Of a stretch of DNA of 64,000 bases, positions 603 through 12,658 are shown in pieces (positions within the stretch are counted from its first letter, which is position 1; each line of letters opens with the position of its first letter). A program made the translations under genes and the position numbers. The stretch is taken from positions 36,912 through 100,911 of IMG/VR virus record IMGVR_UViG_3300017917_004441; one strand, given 5' to 3'. The notes under the pieces are model-generated. The model saw only the letters and a list, made by a program, of their open reading frames with translations, was not told the DNA's origin and made no database searches. Origin of the DNA: a virus.

Positions 603-1850
603 ATGAAGATATTTGTGCAAATTGCATCTTATAGGGATCCACAACTTATCCCAACAATCAAGAACATGTTGGAAAATGCAAAAAGACCAAAAAATTTGAG
701 AATTGGTATTGCAAGACAATTCCACCCTGAAGATAAATTTGACGATCTATCAGAATTTGAAAATGACAACAGATTCAGAATCTTAAACATTCCATATCAA
801 GAGGCTGAAGGCGTATGTTGGGCAAGAAACTTAGTTCAACAACTTTATCAGGGTGAGGAATATACACTACAGATTGATTCTCACATGAGATTTGCACCCA
901 ATTGGGATGACGAAATGATTAAGATGATCAAACAACTTCAGAAGAAAGGACATGCTAAACCATTGTTGACAGGATACGTATCATCATTTGATCCCGATAA
1001 CGACCCACAGGGTAGAGTTCAGGAACCTTGGAGAATGGTTTTTGATAGATTTATTCCCGAAGGTGCGGTGTTTTTCCTACCTGAAACTATACCTGGTTGG
1101 AGAGATATGAAACAACCTGTACCCGCGAGATTCTATTCAGCTCACTACGCTTTTACATTAGGACAGTTCTCAACAGAAGTTCAACACAATCCTGAATACT
1201 ATTTCCACGGTGAAGAAATTTCTATTTCAGCAAGAGCTTACACATGGGGATATGATTTATTTCACCCACATAAGGTTTTGATTTGGCACGAATACACTAG
1301 AAAAGGTAGAACCAAACAATGGGATGATGATAAAAAGTGGGTTGATAGAAATAACAAATCACACTTGATGAACAGAAAGTTGTTTGGTATGGATGGTTTA
1401 GAACAAGAAGGACATGATGGACTTTATGGATTTGGACCTGAAAGAACTCTACGTGACTATGAAAAGTATGCAGGTCTGTTGTTTGAAAAAAGGGCGGTAC
1501 AACAATATACCTTAGATAAGAACTATCCACCTAACCCTTACAATTACGAGAGCGAAGAAGAATGGAAAAAGAATTTTGCTTCAGTATTCAAACATTGTAT
1601 TGATATCAATTACAGTTCCGTACCTGAAAAGGATTACGAGTTTTGGGTTGTTGCATTCCACGGACCTAACGATGAAACATTGTTCAGAAAGGATGCGGAC
1701 AAGAATGAAATCCAACGTATCATGAACGATCCAGATGGGTATGGTAAAGTTTGGAGAGAATTCCAAACAGAATCTAAACCAACTTATTGGGTTGTATGGC
1801 CATACTCAACATCTAAGGGATGGTGTGAGAGAATTACAGGAAACTTATAA
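603..1850 (+). CDS. GlcNAc-transferase-like glycosyltransferase (GT60/PF11397 type)
   Basis: This 415-residue protein opens with FVQIASYRDPQLIPTI, the signature start of the UDP-GlcNAc transferase family that includes Skp1 hydroxyproline GlcNAc-transferase. A DSH triad at residues 92-94 sits where the family has its metal and nucleotide-sugar binding DxH/DxD. The rest (YFHGEEISISARAYTWGYD, then HPHKVLIWHEY) fits the acceptor side of a GT-A fold. Known relatives modify proteins, so a virion or host protein is a possible acceptor; that is inference. It is the first gene of a tight operon, with 2 bases to the next start. The start is the first ATG after the upstream terminator, with an A/T-rich leader and no Shine-Dalgarno sequence. 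Confidence 0.75.
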   Translation: MKIFVQIASYRDPQLIPTIKNMLENAKRPKNLRIGIARQFHPEDKFDDLSEFENDNRFRILNIPYQEAEGVCWARNLVQQLYQGEEYTLQIDSHMRFAPNWDDEMIKMIKQLQKKGHAKPLLTGYVSSFDPDNDPQGRVQEPWRMVFDRFIPEGAVFFLPETIPGWRDMKQPVPARFYSAHYAFTLGQFSTEVQHNPEYYFHGEEISISARAYTWGYDLFHPHKVLIWHEYTRKGRTKQWDDDKKWVDRNNKSHLMNRKLFGMDGLEQEGHDGLYGFGPERTLRDYEKYAGLLFEKRAVQQYTLDKNYPPNPYNYESEEEWKKNFASVFKHCIDINYSSVPEKDYEFWVVAFHGPNDETLFRKDADKNEIQRIMNDPDGYGKVWREFQTESKPTYWVVWPYSTSKGWCERITGNL

Positions 1851-1852
1851 AA

Positions 1853-2563
1853 ATGGTTACATTTGATGGTAAAAAAATTGCGGACATTGGTTATTTTATC
1901 AATTTGGATGAAAGAACCGATAGACGTGAAAAGTTAGAATCACAACTTACTAAATTTAACATTCAGGGTGTAGAAAGGGTCTCAGCAAATAAAACTACCG
2001 ATTCAGGACCAACAAACTGTAAAAGAAGTCACTTTGACTTGTTACAGAAATTAGTTGATTCAGAACATGAGACCTTATTGGTTTTGGAGGATGATTGTTT
2101 GTTTTTGGATTTTCTATTGGAAGAATCTGATGAAATTTTTGATAACATCAACAAAACTCAATGGGATCTATTTTGGTTGGGTTGTAGAAACAGAAGAACT
2201 CCCTTACTGAAAGAAAATAATTGTTATACGGTTTCTTCAGTTTCCCACGCACAGTCTTATTTGATCAAAAAAGATTTTGCTAAACACATCTTGGAAAGAT
2301 ATCCAATATACCCCCACGATAATCATAACAACGTTCCGATTGATGAATTGTTGACTCTGTGTGTTTATGGATACGATGTTGTTGCCAATCCAAATAGTGT
2401 GAATTTTTACAATTTAGATCAACCTTTGGATGTTCTACCAACACATTACACCGCACTTTGTTATGAGAAGTCTCTAACGACCCAATACTCCTCATATAGT
2501 AATCTTTGGCATTACGAAACCCATTGGGAGGAGTATATAATCAAATCGTTCCCTAAGTGGTAA
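1853..2563 (+). CDS. Glycosyltransferase family 25-like protein
   Basis: This 236-residue protein begins with the GT25 signature: YFINLDERTDRREKLESQL near residue 14, then an SHF motif (cf. SHL) and LLVLEDDCLF, whose EDD supplies the metal-binding acidic residues. GT25 includes bacterial LPS galactosyltransferases and animal collagen galactosyltransferases. It lies 2 bases after the GT60-like gene and 3 bases before the next, so it is co-transcribed. The acceptor cannot be told from sequence: capsule or LPS of the host, virion protein, or modified DNA bases are all possible. Confidence 0.75.
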   Translation: MVTFDGKKIADIGYFINLDERTDRREKLESQLTKFNIQGVERVSANKTTDSGPTNCKRSHFDLLQKLVDSEHETLLVLEDDCLFLDFLLEESDEIFDNINKTQWDLFWLGCRNRRTPLLKENNCYTVSSVSHAQSYLIKKDFAKHILERYPIYPHDNHNNVPIDELLTLCVYGYDVVANPNSVNFYNLDQPLDVLPTHYTALCYEKSLTTQYSSYSNLWHYETHWEEYIIKSFPKW

Positions 2564-2566
2564 AGT

Positions 2567-3304
2567 ATGAAATTAGTTAGTGTTACTTGGTCTTATGGAG
2601 ATGAATCTAATGTGAAGGATACTATCCTTTATAAAAGTTTTATCAAACACAATGATGAGAGTGATTTTGTGAATATTCACTTCAACAGATCAAAATATGC
2701 GGAATTGGAAAGTGAATTTCAATCTAAATTCGGATATCAATATGAGTTTCTATTGTATAGAATCTTTTTATTATCAGATTGGGTAAAATTGATAGATGAT
2801 GATGTTCTGATTTTTTCTGATACCACTGATGTTGTTTGTCTTGGTAAGTTGAGTGACATTGAATTTAATGGCGGTATTGTTTTCTCAGCCGAGAGACATC
2901 AATATCCAAATGACATTTCAAGTTGGGGACCAGTCAATCGTTACCCACAGGAGAATTTGGATAAGTCTAACTTCCTAAATGCGGGTCTTCAGATCTCTGA
3001 AAAAGGTTTATATTTGGAACTTCTAAGGTCTGTCATTGAGAACGTATTTCCTTTGGAATACAAAACATTTGGTGGTGATCAAGGTGTTTATATCTACTAT
3101 CTTATCAATGAAATTTCACCAAAAATTACTTTAGATATAGACCGTAAAGTGTTTGTTAGTACTTATCTAACAAGCCCTGATTGGTATAGAGTAGAGAATG
3201 AGAAATTATTATATAATCCCACAAACTCACACCCACTTTTTGTTCATGATAATGGTTGGAATTATGGAAGTCCTAAAATAATTGAGAGATATAGATTGAT
3301 ATGA
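2567..3304 (+). CDS. PLOD-like glycosyltransferase
   Basis: This 245-residue protein has features of the glycosyltransferase domain of procollagen lysyl hydroxylases and related GT-A enzymes: LIDDDVLIF as the DxD metal site, GIVFSAERHQYP, then FLNAGLQI and GGDQGVYIYYL. It is paralogous in layout to the following gene, which carries the same order of motifs. Its stop overlaps the next start (ATGA), indicating translational coupling. The sugar donor and acceptor are unknown. Confidence 0.6.
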   Translation: MKLVSVTWSYGDESNVKDTILYKSFIKHNDESDFVNIHFNRSKYAELESEFQSKFGYQYEFLLYRIFLLSDWVKLIDDDVLIFSDTTDVVCLGKLSDIEFNGGIVFSAERHQYPNDISSWGPVNRYPQENLDKSNFLNAGLQISEKGLYLELLRSVIENVFPLEYKTFGGDQGVYIYYLINEISPKITLDIDRKVFVSTYLTSPDWYRVENEKLLYNPTNSHPLFVHDNGWNYGSPKIIERYRLI

Positions 3305-4032
3305 AAAATGCTATAATTTCCACCTATTATTGTCTTGGTTGTCAAGAACCCTCAAAGGATGAATGTAGATCACGATTTGCATATGATGTTGATGATAACG
3401 ACTTCTATTTGAACTTCAGTAATGATTTCAATCCGTTTGATTTTTCCAACATATCTAATGTTGGTGTGAGTAAACGGAAGGATCTTGTATTCGGTAAGAT
3501 ATTCCGATTGAAAACTTTTATGGAAGAAAATATCTTGGGTAAGTACGATAATATTCTTCACATAGACTATTCAGATACGAAGTTTGCAAGGAGTAGTACG
3601 GAGTTGTTTGAGGACTTTATCAAGACAGGTAAAGATATTGTTATATCAACCGAAAAAAACTGTTGGCCATATCTTCACGCAGTATCAAACTGGTTTGGCA
3701 CTGAATTACCTCAGAAAGAATTTTTCTATGTAAATTCAGGAGCCGTTATATCCAAGACAGAAAAGTTTTACGAAATAATAAAAGAACTTGAATGGATATG
3801 TTTGAATTCTAACATAGACTTTTGGGACGACCAAGGTGTTTGGCAATATTACAACATAAAAGAAAATAACCTCAGTAAGGACCTCAACTCAGAATATTTC
3901 TTTTCAACCGCTGAGTTGGATGAGACTTACTATAAATTTGAAGACGGAGTTATCACTACAAAGTTCGGTACTCAACCTTACTTGATTCATGATAATTCAA
4001 GTTTTTCACTAAACCTAATAAGAAAAATTTAA
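3301..4032 (+). CDS. PLOD-like glycosyltransferase, second copy
   Basis: This 243-residue protein shares the motif order of its upstream neighbour: LHIDYSDTKF in place of the DxD segment, IVISTEKNCWPY, FFYVNSGAVIS and FWDDQGVWQYY. The PLOD-like pattern (acidic metal site, aromatic-rich middle, asparagine/glycine 'NSG' loop, DDQ) is clear. The pair probably arose by duplication and divergence. It overlaps the preceding gene by 4 bases and is followed after 1 base by the methyltransferase-like gene. Confidence 0.6.
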   Translation: MKNAIISTYYCLGCQEPSKDECRSRFAYDVDDNDFYLNFSNDFNPFDFSNISNVGVSKRKDLVFGKIFRLKTFMEENILGKYDNILHIDYSDTKFARSSTELFEDFIKTGKDIVISTEKNCWPYLHAVSNWFGTELPQKEFFYVNSGAVISKTEKFYEIIKELEWICLNSNIDFWDDQGVWQYYNIKENNLSKDLNSEYFFSTAELDETYYKFEDGVITTKFGTQPYLIHDNSSFSLNLIRKI

Positions 4033-4033
4033 G

Positions 4034-4642
4034 ATGAGTGTTTCGGGACATTTTGTTTATAAGGGATTGACTATCATGCAACATCCCAACGTAGAGAAAG
4101 CTTTTGAGGAGCTTTTGATTGATCTAAAACCAACAAAAGTGTTGGAAATCGGTACTTCATCAGGAGGACTTACCCTGATGATTAGAGACATTTTGGATAG
4201 AGTTGGTCTATCAGAAACTCGTTTGGTTACCTATGACGTGTATGAACCACAATATCTGAGATATCATGTAAATGATGGTGCAAATATTGAAATCAAAGTA
4301 GAAAACGTATTCAATCACCAATATTCTGACTTGGAGAACGGTCAAGAAATAATTGATTTCATTACTTCAGAGGGAACAACTTTGGTTTTGTGTGATGGTG
4401 GAAGTAAGAAAAACGAATTCAGAATCTTGTCCAACTTCTTGAAAGTCGGTGATGTAATTATGGCTCACGACTATTCTCCTAACGAACCATATTTTAGAGA
4501 GTTTGTTCATGACACTATTTGGAGTTGGTTGGAAATCCAAGACAGTGATATTGAAGCACCCTGTCAACTCAATAATTTGGAAGGATACTTTGAAGAAACG
4601 TTTAAGAATGTCGTATGGGCATGTAGAAAAAAAATGAAATAA
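4034..4642 (+). CDS. Class I methyltransferase-like protein (cephalosporin hydroxylase-like)
   Basis: This 202-residue protein has a Rossmann methyltransferase core: VLEIGTSSGGLTLMI (SAM-binding motif I, about residues 36-50), an acidic end of strand two near LVTYDVYEP, and LVLCDGGSKKNEF followed by VIMAHDYS. This pattern matches the CmcI/RhaM-like group often encoded beside glycosyltransferases, where members methylate sugars. It sits inside the glycosyltransferase operon, so capping or decorating the glycan is a reasonable role (inference). Confidence 0.65.
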   Translation: MSVSGHFVYKGLTIMQHPNVEKAFEELLIDLKPTKVLEIGTSSGGLTLMIRDILDRVGLSETRLVTYDVYEPQYLRYHVNDGANIEIKVENVFNHQYSDLENGQEIIDFITSEGTTLVLCDGGSKKNEFRILSNFLKVGDVIMAHDYSPNEPYFREFVHDTIWSWLEIQDSDIEAPCQLNNLEGYFEETFKNVVWACRKKMK

Positions 4643-4643
4643 A

Positions 4644-6314
4644 ATGAAAGTTACTTTTGTTACAGGTCTTTGGAATATAAAACGTGATACCTTAGGTGAA
4701 GGTTGGTCAAGGTCATTTGAACATTATTTACAGAAGTTTGAACAACTGTTACAGGCGGATGTGAACTTAATAATTTTCGGTGAAAGTGATTTAGAAGAAT
4801 TCGTTTGGAATCGTCGCAGCCGAGAGAACACTCAATTTATCGTAAGAGATCAAAGTTGGTTCAAATCGGAGTTTTATGACAAGATTCAATCCATAAGGAC
4901 TAACCCTGATTGGTACGGACAAGTAGGATGGTTATCCGAATCAACACAAGCAAAACTTGAGATGTATAATCCTTTGGTGATGTCCAAAGTGTACTTACTA
5001 CATGATGCGAAGTTGATGGATCAATTCAATTCTGACTATATGTTTTGGATTGATGCTGGTCTAACTAACACGGTACACCCAGGTTATTTCACTCACGATA
5101 AAGTGCAGGAAAAATTACCAAAGTATTTTGAAAAATTATCTTTCATTTGTTTTCCTTATGAAGCCAACACTGAGATACACGGATTCAACTTTGCCAAAAT
5201 AAATCAACTTGCCGGGTCAAAAGTGGATATGGTGGCTCGTGGTGGGTTTTTCGGAGGTCCAAAACACGCAATATCAGATCTCAACAGTCTCTATTACAAC
5301 CTTATGAGTTCTACTTTGAACTCAAATTTGATGGGAACCGAGGAATCTTTGTTTACGATCCTGTGTTACAAACACCCTGATCTAATCAATTATTTTGAAA
5401 TTGAATATAATGGTTTGGTCGGTAAGTTTTTTGAAGATTTGAAAAACGAGACCTTGGTGAAAAAATCAAAAGCGCCCGTACAACCCAAAAATACAAATTT
5501 GGATACCAATAACACGGCATTGTATGTAATAACCTTCAATAGTCCAAAACAATTTGAAACATTGATCACTTCAATGTTGGAGTATGATGATGATTTTATC
5601 AACAAACCAAAGAAATTTTTGCTGGATAATTCATCAGATCTCTCAACTACTGAAAAATATAAAGAACTTTGTGATCAACATGGGTTTGAACATATCAAAA
5701 AGGATAATTTGGGAATTTGTGGAGGTAGACAATGGATTGCCGAACATGCTGATGAAAATAACTTTGATTTTTATTGGTTCTTTGAAGATGATATGTTCTT
5801 TTACCCTAAAGAAGGTTCTGTATGTAAAAACGGATTCAATAGATATGTGAAGGGATTATATAAAATTTCTATAGAAATTGCCAAGAATAATAACTTTGAT
5901 TTCTTGAAGTTGAATTATACCGAATTCTTTGGTGATAACGGTACACAATGGTCTTGGTACAACGTTCCACAATCATTCAGGGAAACAAGATGGCCCGAAA
6001 AGAGTCAATTACCTGTACACGGACAAGATCCAAATGCTCCGAGAACTCTGTTCAAGAACATCAGAAGTTATAAAGGTGTACCATTTATAAGTGGTGAAAT
6101 TTATTACTGTAACTGGCCTCAGGTGGTCACCAAAGAGGGAAATGTAAAAATGTTTCTTACTGAGAAGTGGGCGCATCCATTTGAACAGACTTGGATGAGT
6201 TACATGTATCAAGAAACAGTTGCGGGTAACTTGAACCCTGGTATGTTACTTATGACACCAACAGAACACGATAGATTTGAATTTTATGATGGTAAATTGA
6301 GAAAAGAATCCTAA
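4644..6314 (+). CDS. Two-domain protein: HtrL/YibB-like N-terminus, GT2-like C-terminus
   Basis: Residues 1 to about 270 resemble the HtrL/YibB family: VTFVTGLWNIKRD at the start, a FWIDAGLTN segment, and a MVARGGFFGGP stretch. From about residue 288 a second domain starts with ALYVITFNSPKQFETLI, continues with LGICGGRQWIAEHA, and has the acidic metal-site motif FFEDDMFF, as in GT-A family 2 enzymes. It therefore looks like a fusion of two glycosyltransferase-type modules in a single 556-residue protein. It is the last gene of the 603-6314 operon, which has no gap larger than 3 bases. The specificity of either half is unknown. Confidence 0.6.
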   Translation: MKVTFVTGLWNIKRDTLGEGWSRSFEHYLQKFEQLLQADVNLIIFGESDLEEFVWNRRSRENTQFIVRDQSWFKSEFYDKIQSIRTNPDWYGQVGWLSESTQAKLEMYNPLVMSKVYLLHDAKLMDQFNSDYMFWIDAGLTNTVHPGYFTHDKVQEKLPKYFEKLSFICFPYEANTEIHGFNFAKINQLAGSKVDMVARGGFFGGPKHAISDLNSLYYNLMSSTLNSNLMGTEESLFTILCYKHPDLINYFEIEYNGLVGKFFEDLKNETLVKKSKAPVQPKNTNLDTNNTALYVITFNSPKQFETLITSMLEYDDDFINKPKKFLLDNSSDLSTTEKYKELCDQHGFEHIKKDNLGICGGRQWIAEHADENNFDFYWFFEDDMFFYPKEGSVCKNGFNRYVKGLYKISIEIAKNNNFDFLKLNYTEFFGDNGTQWSWYNVPQSFRETRWPEKSQLPVHGQDPNAPRTLFKNIRSYKGVPFISGEIYYCNWPQVVTKEGNVKMFLTEKWAHPFEQTWMSYMYQETVAGNLNPGMLLMTPTEHDRFEFYDGKLRKES

Positions 6315-9683: not shown

Positions 9684-9959
9684 TTCAATACAAGCACCTC
9701 TTTCCAAACTAATTTCATCCCATTCTTCATCAATTCTACCTGAATCAGGTCGGATGATGACATTAGTCATGGCTTTGATTTTAACTCTGTCAGTTGTATT
9801 TGAATTTAATTGAAGATCACAGGAATCAACTCCCCTTACCACTATAGCATACTCACCATTTGTGGTATATTTTCTTTCAGAAACAATTGCGGACTCGGAT
9901 GTTCTTACTCTGTTTCCGTTTATAATTTTTTCTACGGGGATTGTTTTGATTATTGACAT
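9624..9959 (-). CDS. Small conserved phage protein, probably structural
   Basis: This 111-residue, beta-rich protein has no enzymatic motif. The C-terminal half (VIIRPDSGRIDEEWDEISL, GACIEL, then GWYILSSDGLKIW) reads like the small beta-fold capping proteins that accompany virion genes. Its ATG overlaps the stop of the upstream neck-like gene (TAATG on the minus strand), so the two are coupled, which supports it as a real gene. Its last 60 bases are antisense to the end of the DNA polymerase gene. The precise role is unknown. Confidence 0.6.
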   Translation of the reverse strand: MSIIKTIPVEKIINGNRVRTSESAIVSERKYTTNGEYAIVVRGVDSCDLQLNSNTTDRVKIKAMTNVIIRPDSGRIDEEWDEISLERGACIELVSINKGWYILSSDGLKIW

Positions 9960-11077
9960 TATACAACAGTGATTGGAATGGTCATCGGCCTATACTTCAA
10001 CTGAGTATTCAAGTTGGTTGCGATTTCAGCCTCTTTTTTCATTTGGTTTTCAGGACGAAGTCTCTCTAATCTCTGTTGTAATTCAGTTACAAGAGTTACT
10101 TTTTCATCCTTGGCTTCGGTTTGTAGTGATTGGTAATCCATTTGAACTTCACTATCAGGAGTTTTCAGGTTACCACTAAATTTACCACGAACACGGGCTA
10201 GTGTTTCTTTACAATATGCGGTGAACCATCTTCTTACCCAAACTCTTGCCGGTTCGTTCAAGTCAACCCACATTATTTCACTCAAAGGTACATCTGATGG
10301 AAGTTTTACGATATCAGGATTATCTTTCAAACAAAGATCTCTTTCATCACCACAAACCTCGTAATACCAATACCAAACTTTACCTCTTGTAAGTTCAGAA
10401 TCTCCAAAATCAAATTTACCACCAGGTGTATTGAACAACCATACAGCCTTTTTACCATCAGGTAATGCGGTTACTTGGTATTGTAAGTCAGGTTGAATCA
10501 ATCGTCTTTTTACGTTGATATCCTGAAGTCTTGACATAACGTCATACGATGAGAAGAAGAAGTATCCACCACCACCGTAACCTGTTTGTGCAAAACCACC
10601 AGGTCCACCCAAACCACCAGGTCCCCCTAAAGCACCGAAAGCCCAAGGGTCAAACAACATATTGTTTTCTTCAGCTGGTGAATACCACAAAAGTTGGTTG
10701 ATTTCTCTACAAGCCGGAATCTCATATATTTGTTGGTTAGGTACCAGTTCAAAATAGTCCCTTTTCAAAACATATGGACCCGCATTTTGAAGACCGGCAA
10801 TTTTTGAATAAGCATAGGTATATTGAGTTTCCCAATCCAAAGTTCTTCTGATCAAAGCGTTTGCCAATGATTCAGTTTCTAAGTTTAGTCCATATAAAGA
10901 AGTCCATTGAGATTCAATTAACCAATCTTGTACATACTGTGAATAATCTCCAATTGATAATTCTAATAAAGAATCCATCATCTCATATTCCAATTCTACA
11001 GCTCTGAGAGGTGCTCCCAACAAATTTAAAATTCTATTGTAGAATCTACTTCTTTCTGGTTCAGGGATAACTGCCAT
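9959..11077 (-). CDS. Neck/head-completion candidate (gp13-like) with collagen-like stretch
   Basis: This 372-residue protein starts MAVIPEPERSRFYNRILNLLG, followed by alpha-helical segments. A late WVRRWFTAYCKETLARVRGKF helix and an EVQMDYQSLQTEAKDE segment resemble the C-terminal half of T4-type neck protein gp13. Around residues 145-171 lies an unusual run of Gly-X-Y triplets (GAL GGP GGL GGP GGF) followed by a Gly/Tyr-rich patch. A TATTTATA element ends 14 bases before the ATG, as for other virion genes. Virion membership is likely; the gp13 assignment is by pattern and context only. Confidence 0.5.
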   Translation of the reverse strand: MAVIPEPERSRFYNRILNLLGAPLRAVELEYEMMDSLLELSIGDYSQYVQDWLIESQWTSLYGLNLETESLANALIRRTLDWETQYTYAYSKIAGLQNAGPYVLKRDYFELVPNQQIYEIPACREINQLLWYSPAEENNMLFDPWAFGALGGPGGLGGPGGFAQTGYGGGGYFFFSSYDVMSRLQDINVKRRLIQPDLQYQVTALPDGKKAVWLFNTPGGKFDFGDSELTRGKVWYWYYEVCGDERDLCLKDNPDIVKLPSDVPLSEIMWVDLNEPARVWVRRWFTAYCKETLARVRGKFSGNLKTPDSEVQMDYQSLQTEAKDEKVTLVTELQQRLERLRPENQMKKEAEIATNLNTQLKYRPMTIPITVV

Positions 11078-11107: not shown

Positions 11108-12625
11108 TCAGAATTGGTACAAAATAGAAGATTCGGGGAAGTAATATGCCCCATCTTTTATTTGGGAATCTTTGTTATCAAAAACTACAATATCTTTTCC
11201 TCTTTTGACAAAAACCATCCAATCGGTGTTGTATTTTTTGACGTTAGCACTACCCTCTATTTTGAGTTCACCATCTTCATTGATGATTGAATTGAATGGT
11301 TTGATTTGTGCGGTATACACTTTTCCATCAATTCTGATTTTCATATCTACACCCATCATATCTTCCTTACTACCCAATTCACCTATCCTGTTGATATTTT
11401 CAGGACCAAATTTTTCTTTGAATTTCTTCTCAACAAGATCTTCTGTTTTGTTACCTTTCTCTGAGGTTTTTACCAAAATATTGAAAATCGTTTGAAATGT
11501 TTTTGAATTTGGATCAAAGATTCTAAATTTCAGTTGATTCATGAATCCCAACATTCTAGCCATTTCATTAATTTGTTCTTGTTCGTTTTTTCCCACGAAG
11601 TTGATTGGTTCCATATTTGCCCTGACCAAAACCAAATTCAGATCACGCATTAGTGGACAAAAAGCACTATAATTCGTGTTCAAATAATTGATTATTGATC
11701 TACCCGGCTTTTCAAAGTCATACACACCACTACTGGTTCTTGGTGCGTATTCGTTTCTTTCATAATGCTTATCGGCAAACACCTCGGCCAAAAATTTCAT
11801 AATAGCGTCTTGATACATTGTCAAAACTGTGAGATTATTGTTGAACATTTCTCTGATTTTAGCCCTTTCTTGGTCGGAACAAGCTTGAACTTTAGTCTGT
11901 TCTTTCATAATTCTTTTGATGGAATTACTCTCTTGAATATTTTTCTTGGTCAGTCTTTCCAATTCCTCTTCAACAAATTCCCAATTCACGACTTTCCAAA
12001 AGTTTTTGATGTACTCATCTCTTTTGTTTCTGTACTTTAGATAATAGGCGTGTTCCCATAGATCCAATCCCAACAATGGATGACCACCTTGTTTTATAAC
12101 ATTCATAAGTGGGTTGTCCTGATTGGCGGTTGTCATAATTTTGAGTGTACCTCTTTTGGTTAGTACAAGCCAAACCCAACCTGATCCGAATCTTTTCTTG
12201 GCGTATTCTTCAAACTTCTTTTTGAAATTCGCGTAGGATCCAAAGTTGGAATTGATCTTCTTTAGGATACCTTCTTTGGGTTCCATCTCTGTTGGAGACA
12301 ACATTTTCCAAAATATCGCGTGGTTGTAAGCCCCACCCGCATTATCCCTTACAGACTTGGAAAACCTTTCAATTGTTTTGATAATTTCTTCCAACGAAAG
12401 ATCACCATAATTTTTTCCTTCTAATGCGTCATTGAGTTTGGAGATGTATCCTTTATAGTGTTTGTTATAATGGATGTTCATTGTCTCGGGGTCAATGAAC
12501 TGACGTAAGGCTGAATATCCGTAGGGTAATTTCTCTGCTCTGATTTTTTTGGCTTCGTGAAGTTGTTCTTGGTTTTGACGGATACGTTCTTCTAAGAGTT
12601 GTATTTTGTTTTTTATATTTCTCAT
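11108..12625 (-). CDS. Superoxide dismutase fused to a PD-(D/E)XK-like domain
   Basis: Residues about 30-225 form a full Mn/Fe superoxide dismutase: LPYGYSALRQFID, the helix with ligand H52 (NIHYNKHY), NHAIFW with H102, FGSGWVWLV, and LDLWEHAYYLKY with D188 and H192. All four metal ligands are present. Gly-Gly at 97-98 and Gln169 (TTANQDNPLM) are Mn-type signatures. The C-terminal 280 residues are not SOD. A later helix KTEDLVEKKFKEKFG, then GVDMKI (D427) and AQIK (Q440, K442), fit a PD-(D/E)XK nuclease core with Gln in place of Glu. An N-terminal coiled-coil-like helix (residues 1-30) precedes the SOD. The TATTTATA element suggests expression together with virion genes. Nuclease activity is inference. 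Confidence 0.8.
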   Translation of the reverse strand: MRNIKNKIQLLEERIRQNQEQLHEAKKIRAEKLPYGYSALRQFIDPETMNIHYNKHYKGYISKLNDALEGKNYGDLSLEEIIKTIERFSKSVRDNAGGAYNHAIFWKMLSPTEMEPKEGILKKINSNFGSYANFKKKFEEYAKKRFGSGWVWLVLTKRGTLKIMTTANQDNPLMNVIKQGGHPLLGLDLWEHAYYLKYRNKRDEYIKNFWKVVNWEFVEEELERLTKKNIQESNSIKRIMKEQTKVQACSDQERAKIREMFNNNLTVLTMYQDAIMKFLAEVFADKHYERNEYAPRTSSGVYDFEKPGRSIINYLNTNYSAFCPLMRDLNLVLVRANMEPINFVGKNEQEQINEMARMLGFMNQLKFRIFDPNSKTFQTIFNILVKTSEKGNKTEDLVEKKFKEKFGPENINRIGELGSKEDMMGVDMKIRIDGKVYTAQIKPFNSIINEDGELKIEGSANVKKYNTDWMVFVKRGKDIVVFDNKDSQIKDGAYYFPESSILYQF

Positions 12626-12650: not shown

Positions 12651-12658
12651 TATAAATA
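12651..12658 (-). promoter_or_regulatory. TATTTATA element upstream of the SOD fusion gene
   Basis: On the minus strand it reads GGGGTATTTATAATCAATAA, nearly identical to the site at 6319. It ends 25 bases before the ATG at 12625. Confidence 0.65.

What the first reader, a model, noticed from the sequence alone, without database searches (positions are those of the whole stretch)
11108..12625. Superoxide dismutase fused to a PD-(D/E)XK-like domain in a phage
Seen: a complete SOD domain with all four metal ligands (H52, H102, D188, H192) and Mn-type Gly/Gln signatures, continued in frame by 280 residues ending in a D427...Q440-x-K442 pattern with a preceding Glu-bearing helix. The gene has the TATTTATA element at the same kind of spacing as virion genes. 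Inference: the fusion may be packaged or expressed late, tying oxidative defence to DNA cutting or repair, or the nuclease fold may be a DNA-binding relic.
Basis: partly seen in the sequence, partly recalled or inferred. Interest (0 to 1): 0.8.

Follow-up and report, generated by a model that had tools for sequence, protein, structure and literature searches.

The report
Phage superoxide dismutase–nuclease polyprotein
A family of T4-like environmental phages makes one protein that joins a complete superoxide dismutase to a DNA-cutting-type domain; conserved cut sites around each half suggest that it is loaded into the virus head, split in two and injected into the host, which needs testing.

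Summary
Window 11108-12625(-) is one 505-aa frame: a complete Mn-type SOD (31-222), a helical middle domain (249-370), and a domain (371-505) whose AlphaFold model resembles PD-(D/E)XK nucleases (I-Ssp6803I, Hjc), with E395, D427, Q440 and K442 invariant. The fusion is no assembly artefact: I found 161 distinct viral copies. No report of it turned up in the searched literature.

Three glutamates (E24, E232, E242), in or next to low-confidence linkers, carry L/I/V at -2 in 100/100/97% of 32 diverse members, with variable neighbours. That is the T4 gp21 prohead-protease motif (L/I-X-E). Seven related contigs carry gp21-type proteases; seven full-length gp23 capsid proteins show LINE|A at the expected site. 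The SOD-nuclease linker also resembles N-terminal leaders of unrelated proteins in a related phage.

At the same gene slot some relatives lack SOD (at least two losses, one an in-frame deletion keeping two cut sites); others carry SOD alone. The halves therefore do not need each other.

Best reading: a head-packaged two-cargo precursor, like T4 internal proteins, cut into separate SOD and nuclease and delivered with the genome. Packaging, cleavage and both activities are inferred, not shown.

The parts
11108..12625 (-). whole 505-aa leader-SOD-MID-NUC gene
   Evidence: 161 distinct viral fusion sequences
12651..12658 (-). TATTTATA promoter-like element, 25 nt before the ATG
12554..12625 (-). 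N-terminal leader, aa 1-24 (predicted helix)
   Evidence: alignment; model; kept in SOD-only and mostly in SOD-less relatives
12554..12562 (-). putative protease site A, L22-H23-E24|A25
   Evidence: E24 invariant with L/I/V at P3 in 32/32 representatives; pLDDT <50 at 19-24
11960..12535 (-). Fe/Mn SOD domain, aa 31-222, Mn-type
11930..11938 (-). putative protease site B, I230-Q231-E232|S233
   Evidence: E232 invariant, L/I/V at P3 in 32/32; pLDDT <50 at 229-240
11900..11908 (-). putative protease site C, M240-K241-E242|Q243 (this copy has Met at P3; 30 of 31 representatives with the Glu have L or I)
11516..11881 (-). MID domain, aa 249-370, helical, conserved GRSxINxLNTNYSxFC...DxN; no known family
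11111..11515 (-). PD-(D/E)XK-like domain, aa 371-505; E395, D427, Q440, K442 invariant
9959..11077 (-). neighbour: head-tail adaptor family, TATTTATA 14 nt upstream; same neighbour in L046 and L131
12669..14435 (-). neighbour: DNA helicase; same neighbour in L046 and L131

Best explanation
The gene encodes a two-cargo precursor of the T4 internal-head-protein kind. The leader (aa 1-24) directs the protein into the prohead core. During maturation the phage's gp21-type protease cuts after E24, and after E232 and/or E242, removing the leader and separating an ordinary-sized Mn-SOD (about 25-232) from a roughly 260-aa nuclease (about 243-505). Both stay in the head with the DNA and enter the host cell with it. 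There the nuclease cuts DNA, most likely host or competitor DNA, and the SOD blunts superoxide early in infection. Shown here: domain make-up, invariant catalytic residues, conserved (L/I/V)xE motifs at the domain boundaries, gp21/gp23 head genes in related phages, independent loss of each module. Inferred: packaging, cleavage, both enzyme activities, delivery, and the target DNA.
For: (1) In 32 representatives below 80% identity, the variable conserved-E columns with L/I/V two residues before are E24, E232 and E242 only; in six neighbouring gene families (2543 aa in all) one column met the same rule. (2) In 53 representatives every left linker has (L/I/V)xE (shuffles mean 25, max 34) and 51 right linkers have two or more (shuffles mean 15, max 23). 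(3) The sites lie in or beside the lowest-confidence segments, between folded domains. (4) Seven related contigs carry Peptidase_S77, seven carry full-length gp23 with LINE|A at the expected place, and the scaffold has many such sites; T4 gp21 cuts after L/I-X-E (PMC9026906). (5) The paired-site linker pattern matches 103 of 121 distinct right linkers and nothing else in those proteins; it also occurs at the N-termini of 12 of 339 ORFs in a related phage, 3.1 expected. (6) SOD-only, SOD-less and fused forms coexist; L220 lost SOD in frame keeping sites A and C. (7) T4 can package and deliver nucleases fused to the capsid-targeting leader (PMC9026906), and chlorovirus PBCV-1 packages a SOD and restriction endonucleases (PMC7019647).
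Against: No virion proteomics or cleavage data. L/I-X-E is a short motif: across the window's record one site in the first 40 residues is little more common than inside proteins (18 of 81 ORFs against 18%), so the case rests on conservation. P1' at site A is mostly Met, unlike the Ala of gp23, though gp21 itself has LIE|M. The window's own site C has Met at P3; L060 lost site C and some eroded SOD-less leaders lack a clean site. The leader is not the same sequence as the MKIIITESQ/MKKIIRLTESDL leaders. gp21/gp23 were not found in the window's own 101-kb record, which is probably a fragment. The promoter-like element also precedes replication genes. A nuclease packed with phage DNA needs restraint or protection, not shown.
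Confidence: 0.55

Rival explanations
1. A non-packaged, uncleaved bifunctional enzyme made during infection: SOD protects the phage factory or the DNA from superoxide while the nuclease domain processes DNA, with fusion keeping the two together.
For: Fusion kept in 161 distinct sequences; both active sites invariant; gene next to a helicase in L046 and L131 and near DNA polymerase.
Against: Each half occurs without the other at least twice; five large SOD-less records have no SOD elsewhere; the linkers keep protease-type motifs and low model confidence.
Confidence: 0.22
2. The nuclease half is a Holliday-junction-resolvase-like recombination or packaging enzyme used late in infection; SOD is a tolerated passenger. 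Nothing enters the virion.
For: Hjc and RecU among the fold matches; helicase and polymerase neighbours; MID-NUC alone suffices in the L131 clade and in a 735-kb phage.
Against: Does not explain the conserved (L/I/V)xE sites, the leader-like linker or leader retention in SOD-only forms; the best fold match is a homing endonuclease, and all matches are weak.
Confidence: 0.13
3. The protein is packaged but not cut: the (L/I/V)xE segments are short amphipathic docking helices that bind the scaffold or portal.
For: The linker is weakly predicted helical; similar segments sit at N-termini of other proteins of a related phage.
Against: Glu is fixed and P2 is free at all three sites, as for a protease motif; similar sites occur in the scaffold and gp23.
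Confidence: 0.1

Closest known systems
T4 internal head proteins (IPI, IPII, IPIII, Alt) with capsid-targeting leaders, cut by gp21
   Same: Short N-terminal leader ending in (L/I)xE; T4-type gp21/gp23 head module in related phages; proposed delivery with the genome (PMC9026906; PMC5694885).
   Different: Carries two enzyme domains with candidate cut sites between them; no sequence homology to IPI-III or Alt was tested; packaging unproven.
Bacterial Mn/Fe superoxide dismutase (PF00081/PF02777)
   Same: Complete domain, all ligands and Mn-type signatures invariant; nearest cellular relatives 54% identical or less, mostly Bacteroidota.
   Different: Flanked by a phage leader and a nuclease; all 86 SOD frames in the bacterial loci examined lack MID and NUC.
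PD-(D/E)XK nucleases (I-Ssp6803I, archaeal Hjc, RecU)
   Same: Fold match and E/D/QxK residues.
   Different: No detectable sequence family; extra helical MID domain; Gln in place of the usual acidic residue of (D/E)XK; canonical second core helix not clearly predicted.
Stand-alone phage SODs (PA5oct-like Pseudomonas phages, Vibrio phage 2.275.O)
   Same: Fe/Mn SOD encoded by phages.
   Different: Match only the SOD domain at 26-30% identity; no nuclease domain matched.
PBCV-1 virion cargo
   Same: The virion carries a SOD and DNA restriction endonucleases (PMC7019647).
   Different: Separate genes, Cu/Zn SOD, algal virus.
UniProt A0A6J5L953, 'superoxide dismutase', uncultured Caudovirales phage, 501 aa
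   Same: Matches the MID-NUC model at TM 0.86 with SOD-fusion length, so a member already sits in databases.
   Different: Named only as SOD in the table seen here; the nuclease half and linkers are not mentioned.

Membership tests
Fe/Mn superoxide dismutase | His/His/Asp/His metal ligands and both Pfam domains above cut-off | tested here: met
Fe/Mn superoxide dismutase | Mn-type Gly and Gln signatures | tested here: met
   AGG and NQD, invariant
Fe/Mn superoxide dismutase | superoxide dismutation with Mn or Fe | not testable with these tools
   needs assay
PD-(D/E)XK superfamily | core fold | tested here: met
   model pLDDT 87, pTM 0.80; meaningful PDB matches are all PD-(D/E)XK, best E 0.015
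PD-(D/E)XK superfamily | acidic, acidic, (D/E/Q)xK residues conserved | tested here: met
   E395, D427, Q440, K442 invariant
PD-(D/E)XK superfamily | canonical second core helix | tested here: inconclusive
   458-468 not predicted as helix
PD-(D/E)XK superfamily | sequence-profile match to a known family | tested here: not met
   no credible Pfam, PHROG, NCBIfam or PDB-sequence match; membership rests on fold and residues only
PD-(D/E)XK superfamily | nuclease activity | not testable with these tools
   needs assay
T4-type gp21-processed internal head protein | (L/I)xE sites at leader and domain boundaries | tested here: met
T4-type gp21-processed internal head protein | phage encodes gp21-type protease and gp23 | tested here: inconclusive
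   present in related contigs; not found in the window's own record, probably a fragment
T4-type gp21-processed internal head protein | present and cut in the virion | not testable with these tools
   needs virion proteomics
T4-type gp21-processed internal head protein | leader sequence shared with other packaged proteins | tested here: inconclusive
   SOD-MID linker fits the shared paired-site pattern; the true N-terminal leader only partly resembles it

The most novel reading that the evidence does not exclude
A natural self-separating cargo polyprotein: T4-like phages load one precursor into the head and the prohead protease splits it into an antioxidant enzyme and a DNA-cutting enzyme that are injected with the genome, giving the injected cargo both an oxidative-burst countermeasure and a DNA attack from the first minute of infection.
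Probability: 0.42. Interest if true: 0.86.

Novelty: new variant of a known kind. Interest (0 to 1): 0.72.

Why it matters
If true, it would be the first SOD I know of delivered by a bacteriophage particle, and a naturally occurring version of the laboratory trick of packaging enzymes in T4 heads through a capsid-targeting leader. It would suggest that superoxide at the moment of phage entry matters enough to be countered before any phage gene is expressed, and would make that testable. The linker pattern also offers a way to list candidate injected proteins in uncultured T4-like phages from sequence alone. At the least it is a widespread, apparently undescribed phage protein family whose one database relative seen here is named only 'superoxide dismutase'.

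Tried and rejected
Assembly artefact or two genes: rejected, 161 distinct fusions; one split copy, L111, looks like a frameshift. Known nuclease family by sequence: none; the weak phrog_34249, Pol X and MC4 hits were set aside. Host gene: one genome scan with two peptide patterns found no cellular MID-NUC, suggestive but not exhaustive. Promoter as evidence of a virion role: rejected, it also precedes replication genes. A single N-terminal LxE as evidence: rejected, hardly enriched across the window's record. Phage DNA modification as self-protection: inconclusive; a thymidylate-synthase homologue in 3 of 7 records, not in G000, plus glucosyltransferase-like genes in the window. SOD relocated rather than lost in SOD-less phages: rejected in five large records. 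Full-model fold search returned only SODs among the matches shown, so the C-terminal part was modelled alone. Papers: no report of the fusion.

Full report
What is there. The frame at 11108-12625(-) is a single 505-aa protein. Residues 31-222 are a full Fe/Mn superoxide dismutase of the Mn type, nearest in solved structures to Sphingobacterium MnSOD; its nearest cellular relatives are mostly Bacteroidota, at 54% identity or less. All four ligands, the second-sphere His56 and Tyr60 and the E191-H192 pair are invariant in 27 diverse homologues; their roles are assigned from memory of E. coli MnSOD. The remaining 280 residues have no credible match to Pfam, PHROGs, NCBIfam or PDB sequences.

The C-terminal half. 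A model from 38 sequences (pLDDT 87.1, pTM 0.80) shows a helical MID domain and a mixed domain. PDB matches are I-Ssp6803I first, then archaeal Hjc, with RecU lower, all PD-(D/E)XK enzymes. No single match is significant (best E 0.015), but the agreement, with invariant E395, D427, Q440 and K442, makes a competent PD-(D/E)XK domain the best reading. The second core helix is not clearly predicted.

How common. Architecture scans of the viral loci gave 161 distinct SOD-MID-NUC proteins, 27 MID-NUC, and SOD-only forms of which L316 and L302 end at internal stops. No phage record in the annotated collection carries the full fusion; a UniProt entry of fusion length exists, named only SOD. No cellular copy of MID-NUC was found, by a limited scan.

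One gene slot, three forms. In L131 the slot between helicase and head-tail adaptor holds MID-NUC without SOD; L046 has the fusion in the same slot. On a tree of 81 MID-NUC sequences, the SOD-less rows need three changes: a clade of 18, the lone L220 inside a well-supported fusion group, and the very distant L184. L220 keeps INE|MKKIEIEKL joined in frame to KSIISE|GKSE, which points to deletion from a fusion ancestor. Five large SOD-less records have no SOD elsewhere. The two halves are therefore separable in nature.

The linkers. Ranking every column with a conserved Glu, only E24, E232 and E242 combine Glu fixed in at least 95% of sequences, L/I/V at -2 (100, 100, 97%) and free neighbours. 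Six neighbouring gene families gave one such column in 2543 aa, although some had fewer representatives. Shuffling linker residues does not reproduce the site counts. All three sites lie in or beside the lowest-confidence segments of the models and bracket the folded SOD. T4 gp21 cuts after L/I-X-E (PMC9026906), and Alt is cut at both ends at ITE and LTE (PMC5694885).

Is the protease there? The window's record (100,911 bp) shows neither gp21 nor gp23 by Pfam and is probably a fragment. In 11 related contigs, 8 have gp23 and 7 have Peptidase_S77. The seven full-length gp23 proteins begin with about 60 residues ending LINE|A, the position where T4 gp23 is cut (T4 site from memory), and the scaffold is dense in similar motifs.

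Leaders. In a 294,914-bp relative that carries the fusion, ORFs beginning MKIIITESQ..., MKKIIRLTESDLxRIVxRVISEQ or similar are enriched (25 of 339, 7.4% against 2.1% inside proteins). A paired-site pattern marks 12 of 339 N-termini, 3.1 expected, and 103 of 121 distinct SOD-MID linkers, but nothing else in those proteins. The pattern was written after seeing both sets, so it is descriptive rather than an independent test. It suggests that the fusion joined two leader-bearing proteins.

Mechanism. I favour a head-packaged precursor cut by gp21 into SOD and nuclease and injected with the DNA (0.55). Precedents: T4 packages and delivers EcoRI and staphylococcal nuclease fused to IPIII or its leader; PBCV-1 virions carry a SOD and restriction endonucleases, the latter thought to degrade host DNA within minutes. 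The nuclease target is my weakest inference.

Limits. No proteomics, no assay, no host. The targeting role of the leader is unproven, the window's own site C has Met at P3, and site A mostly has Met at P1', perhaps a relic of a SOD start codon. The TATTTATA element is real but also precedes replication genes, so it does not speak for a virion role.

Noticed in passing
G002 (294,914-bp relative), e.g. 186729-187427(-), 192274-192753(-), 194072-194437(-): About 20 unrelated ORFs share N-terminal leaders (MKIIITESQ..., MKKIIRLTESDLxRIVxRVISEQ, MKLQENIxRIKxMMGLIIE) with one or two (L/I/V)xE sites; candidate capsid-targeting leaders and a possible list of injected proteins.
   Followed up: partly
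L046 2137-3627(-), L055 2121-3629(-), L265 5980-7473(+): A neighbouring ~500-aa protein with an MKIILTENQ-type leader, a zinc-ribbon-like segment and a second nuclease-like domain (GVDVTIDGVNYQIKP) related to NUC; most relatives found lack that C-terminal part.
   Followed up: partly
L184 7713-8639 (LR756501, 735-kb phage): Very distant stand-alone MID-NUC homologue; BFVD also lists a 1113-aa marine phage protein (A0A8D9CCA0) matching the same fold.
   Followed up: partly
window 6319, 6764, 11092, 12651, 20382, 23771, 35524, 40203, 55665: TATTTATA in coding-strand orientation upstream of both virion and replication genes; candidate promoter element of this lineage, resembling but not identical to the T4 late TATAAATA.
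   Followed up: partly
L111 5249-6810: Fusion gene split into SOD and MID-NUC frames by an apparent frameshift in the linker; error or natural split not resolved.
   Followed up: no
window 603-6314: Cluster of glycosyltransferase-like genes (phrog_24687, phrog_2835, weak phrog_842), either DNA or surface glycosylation.
   Followed up: no
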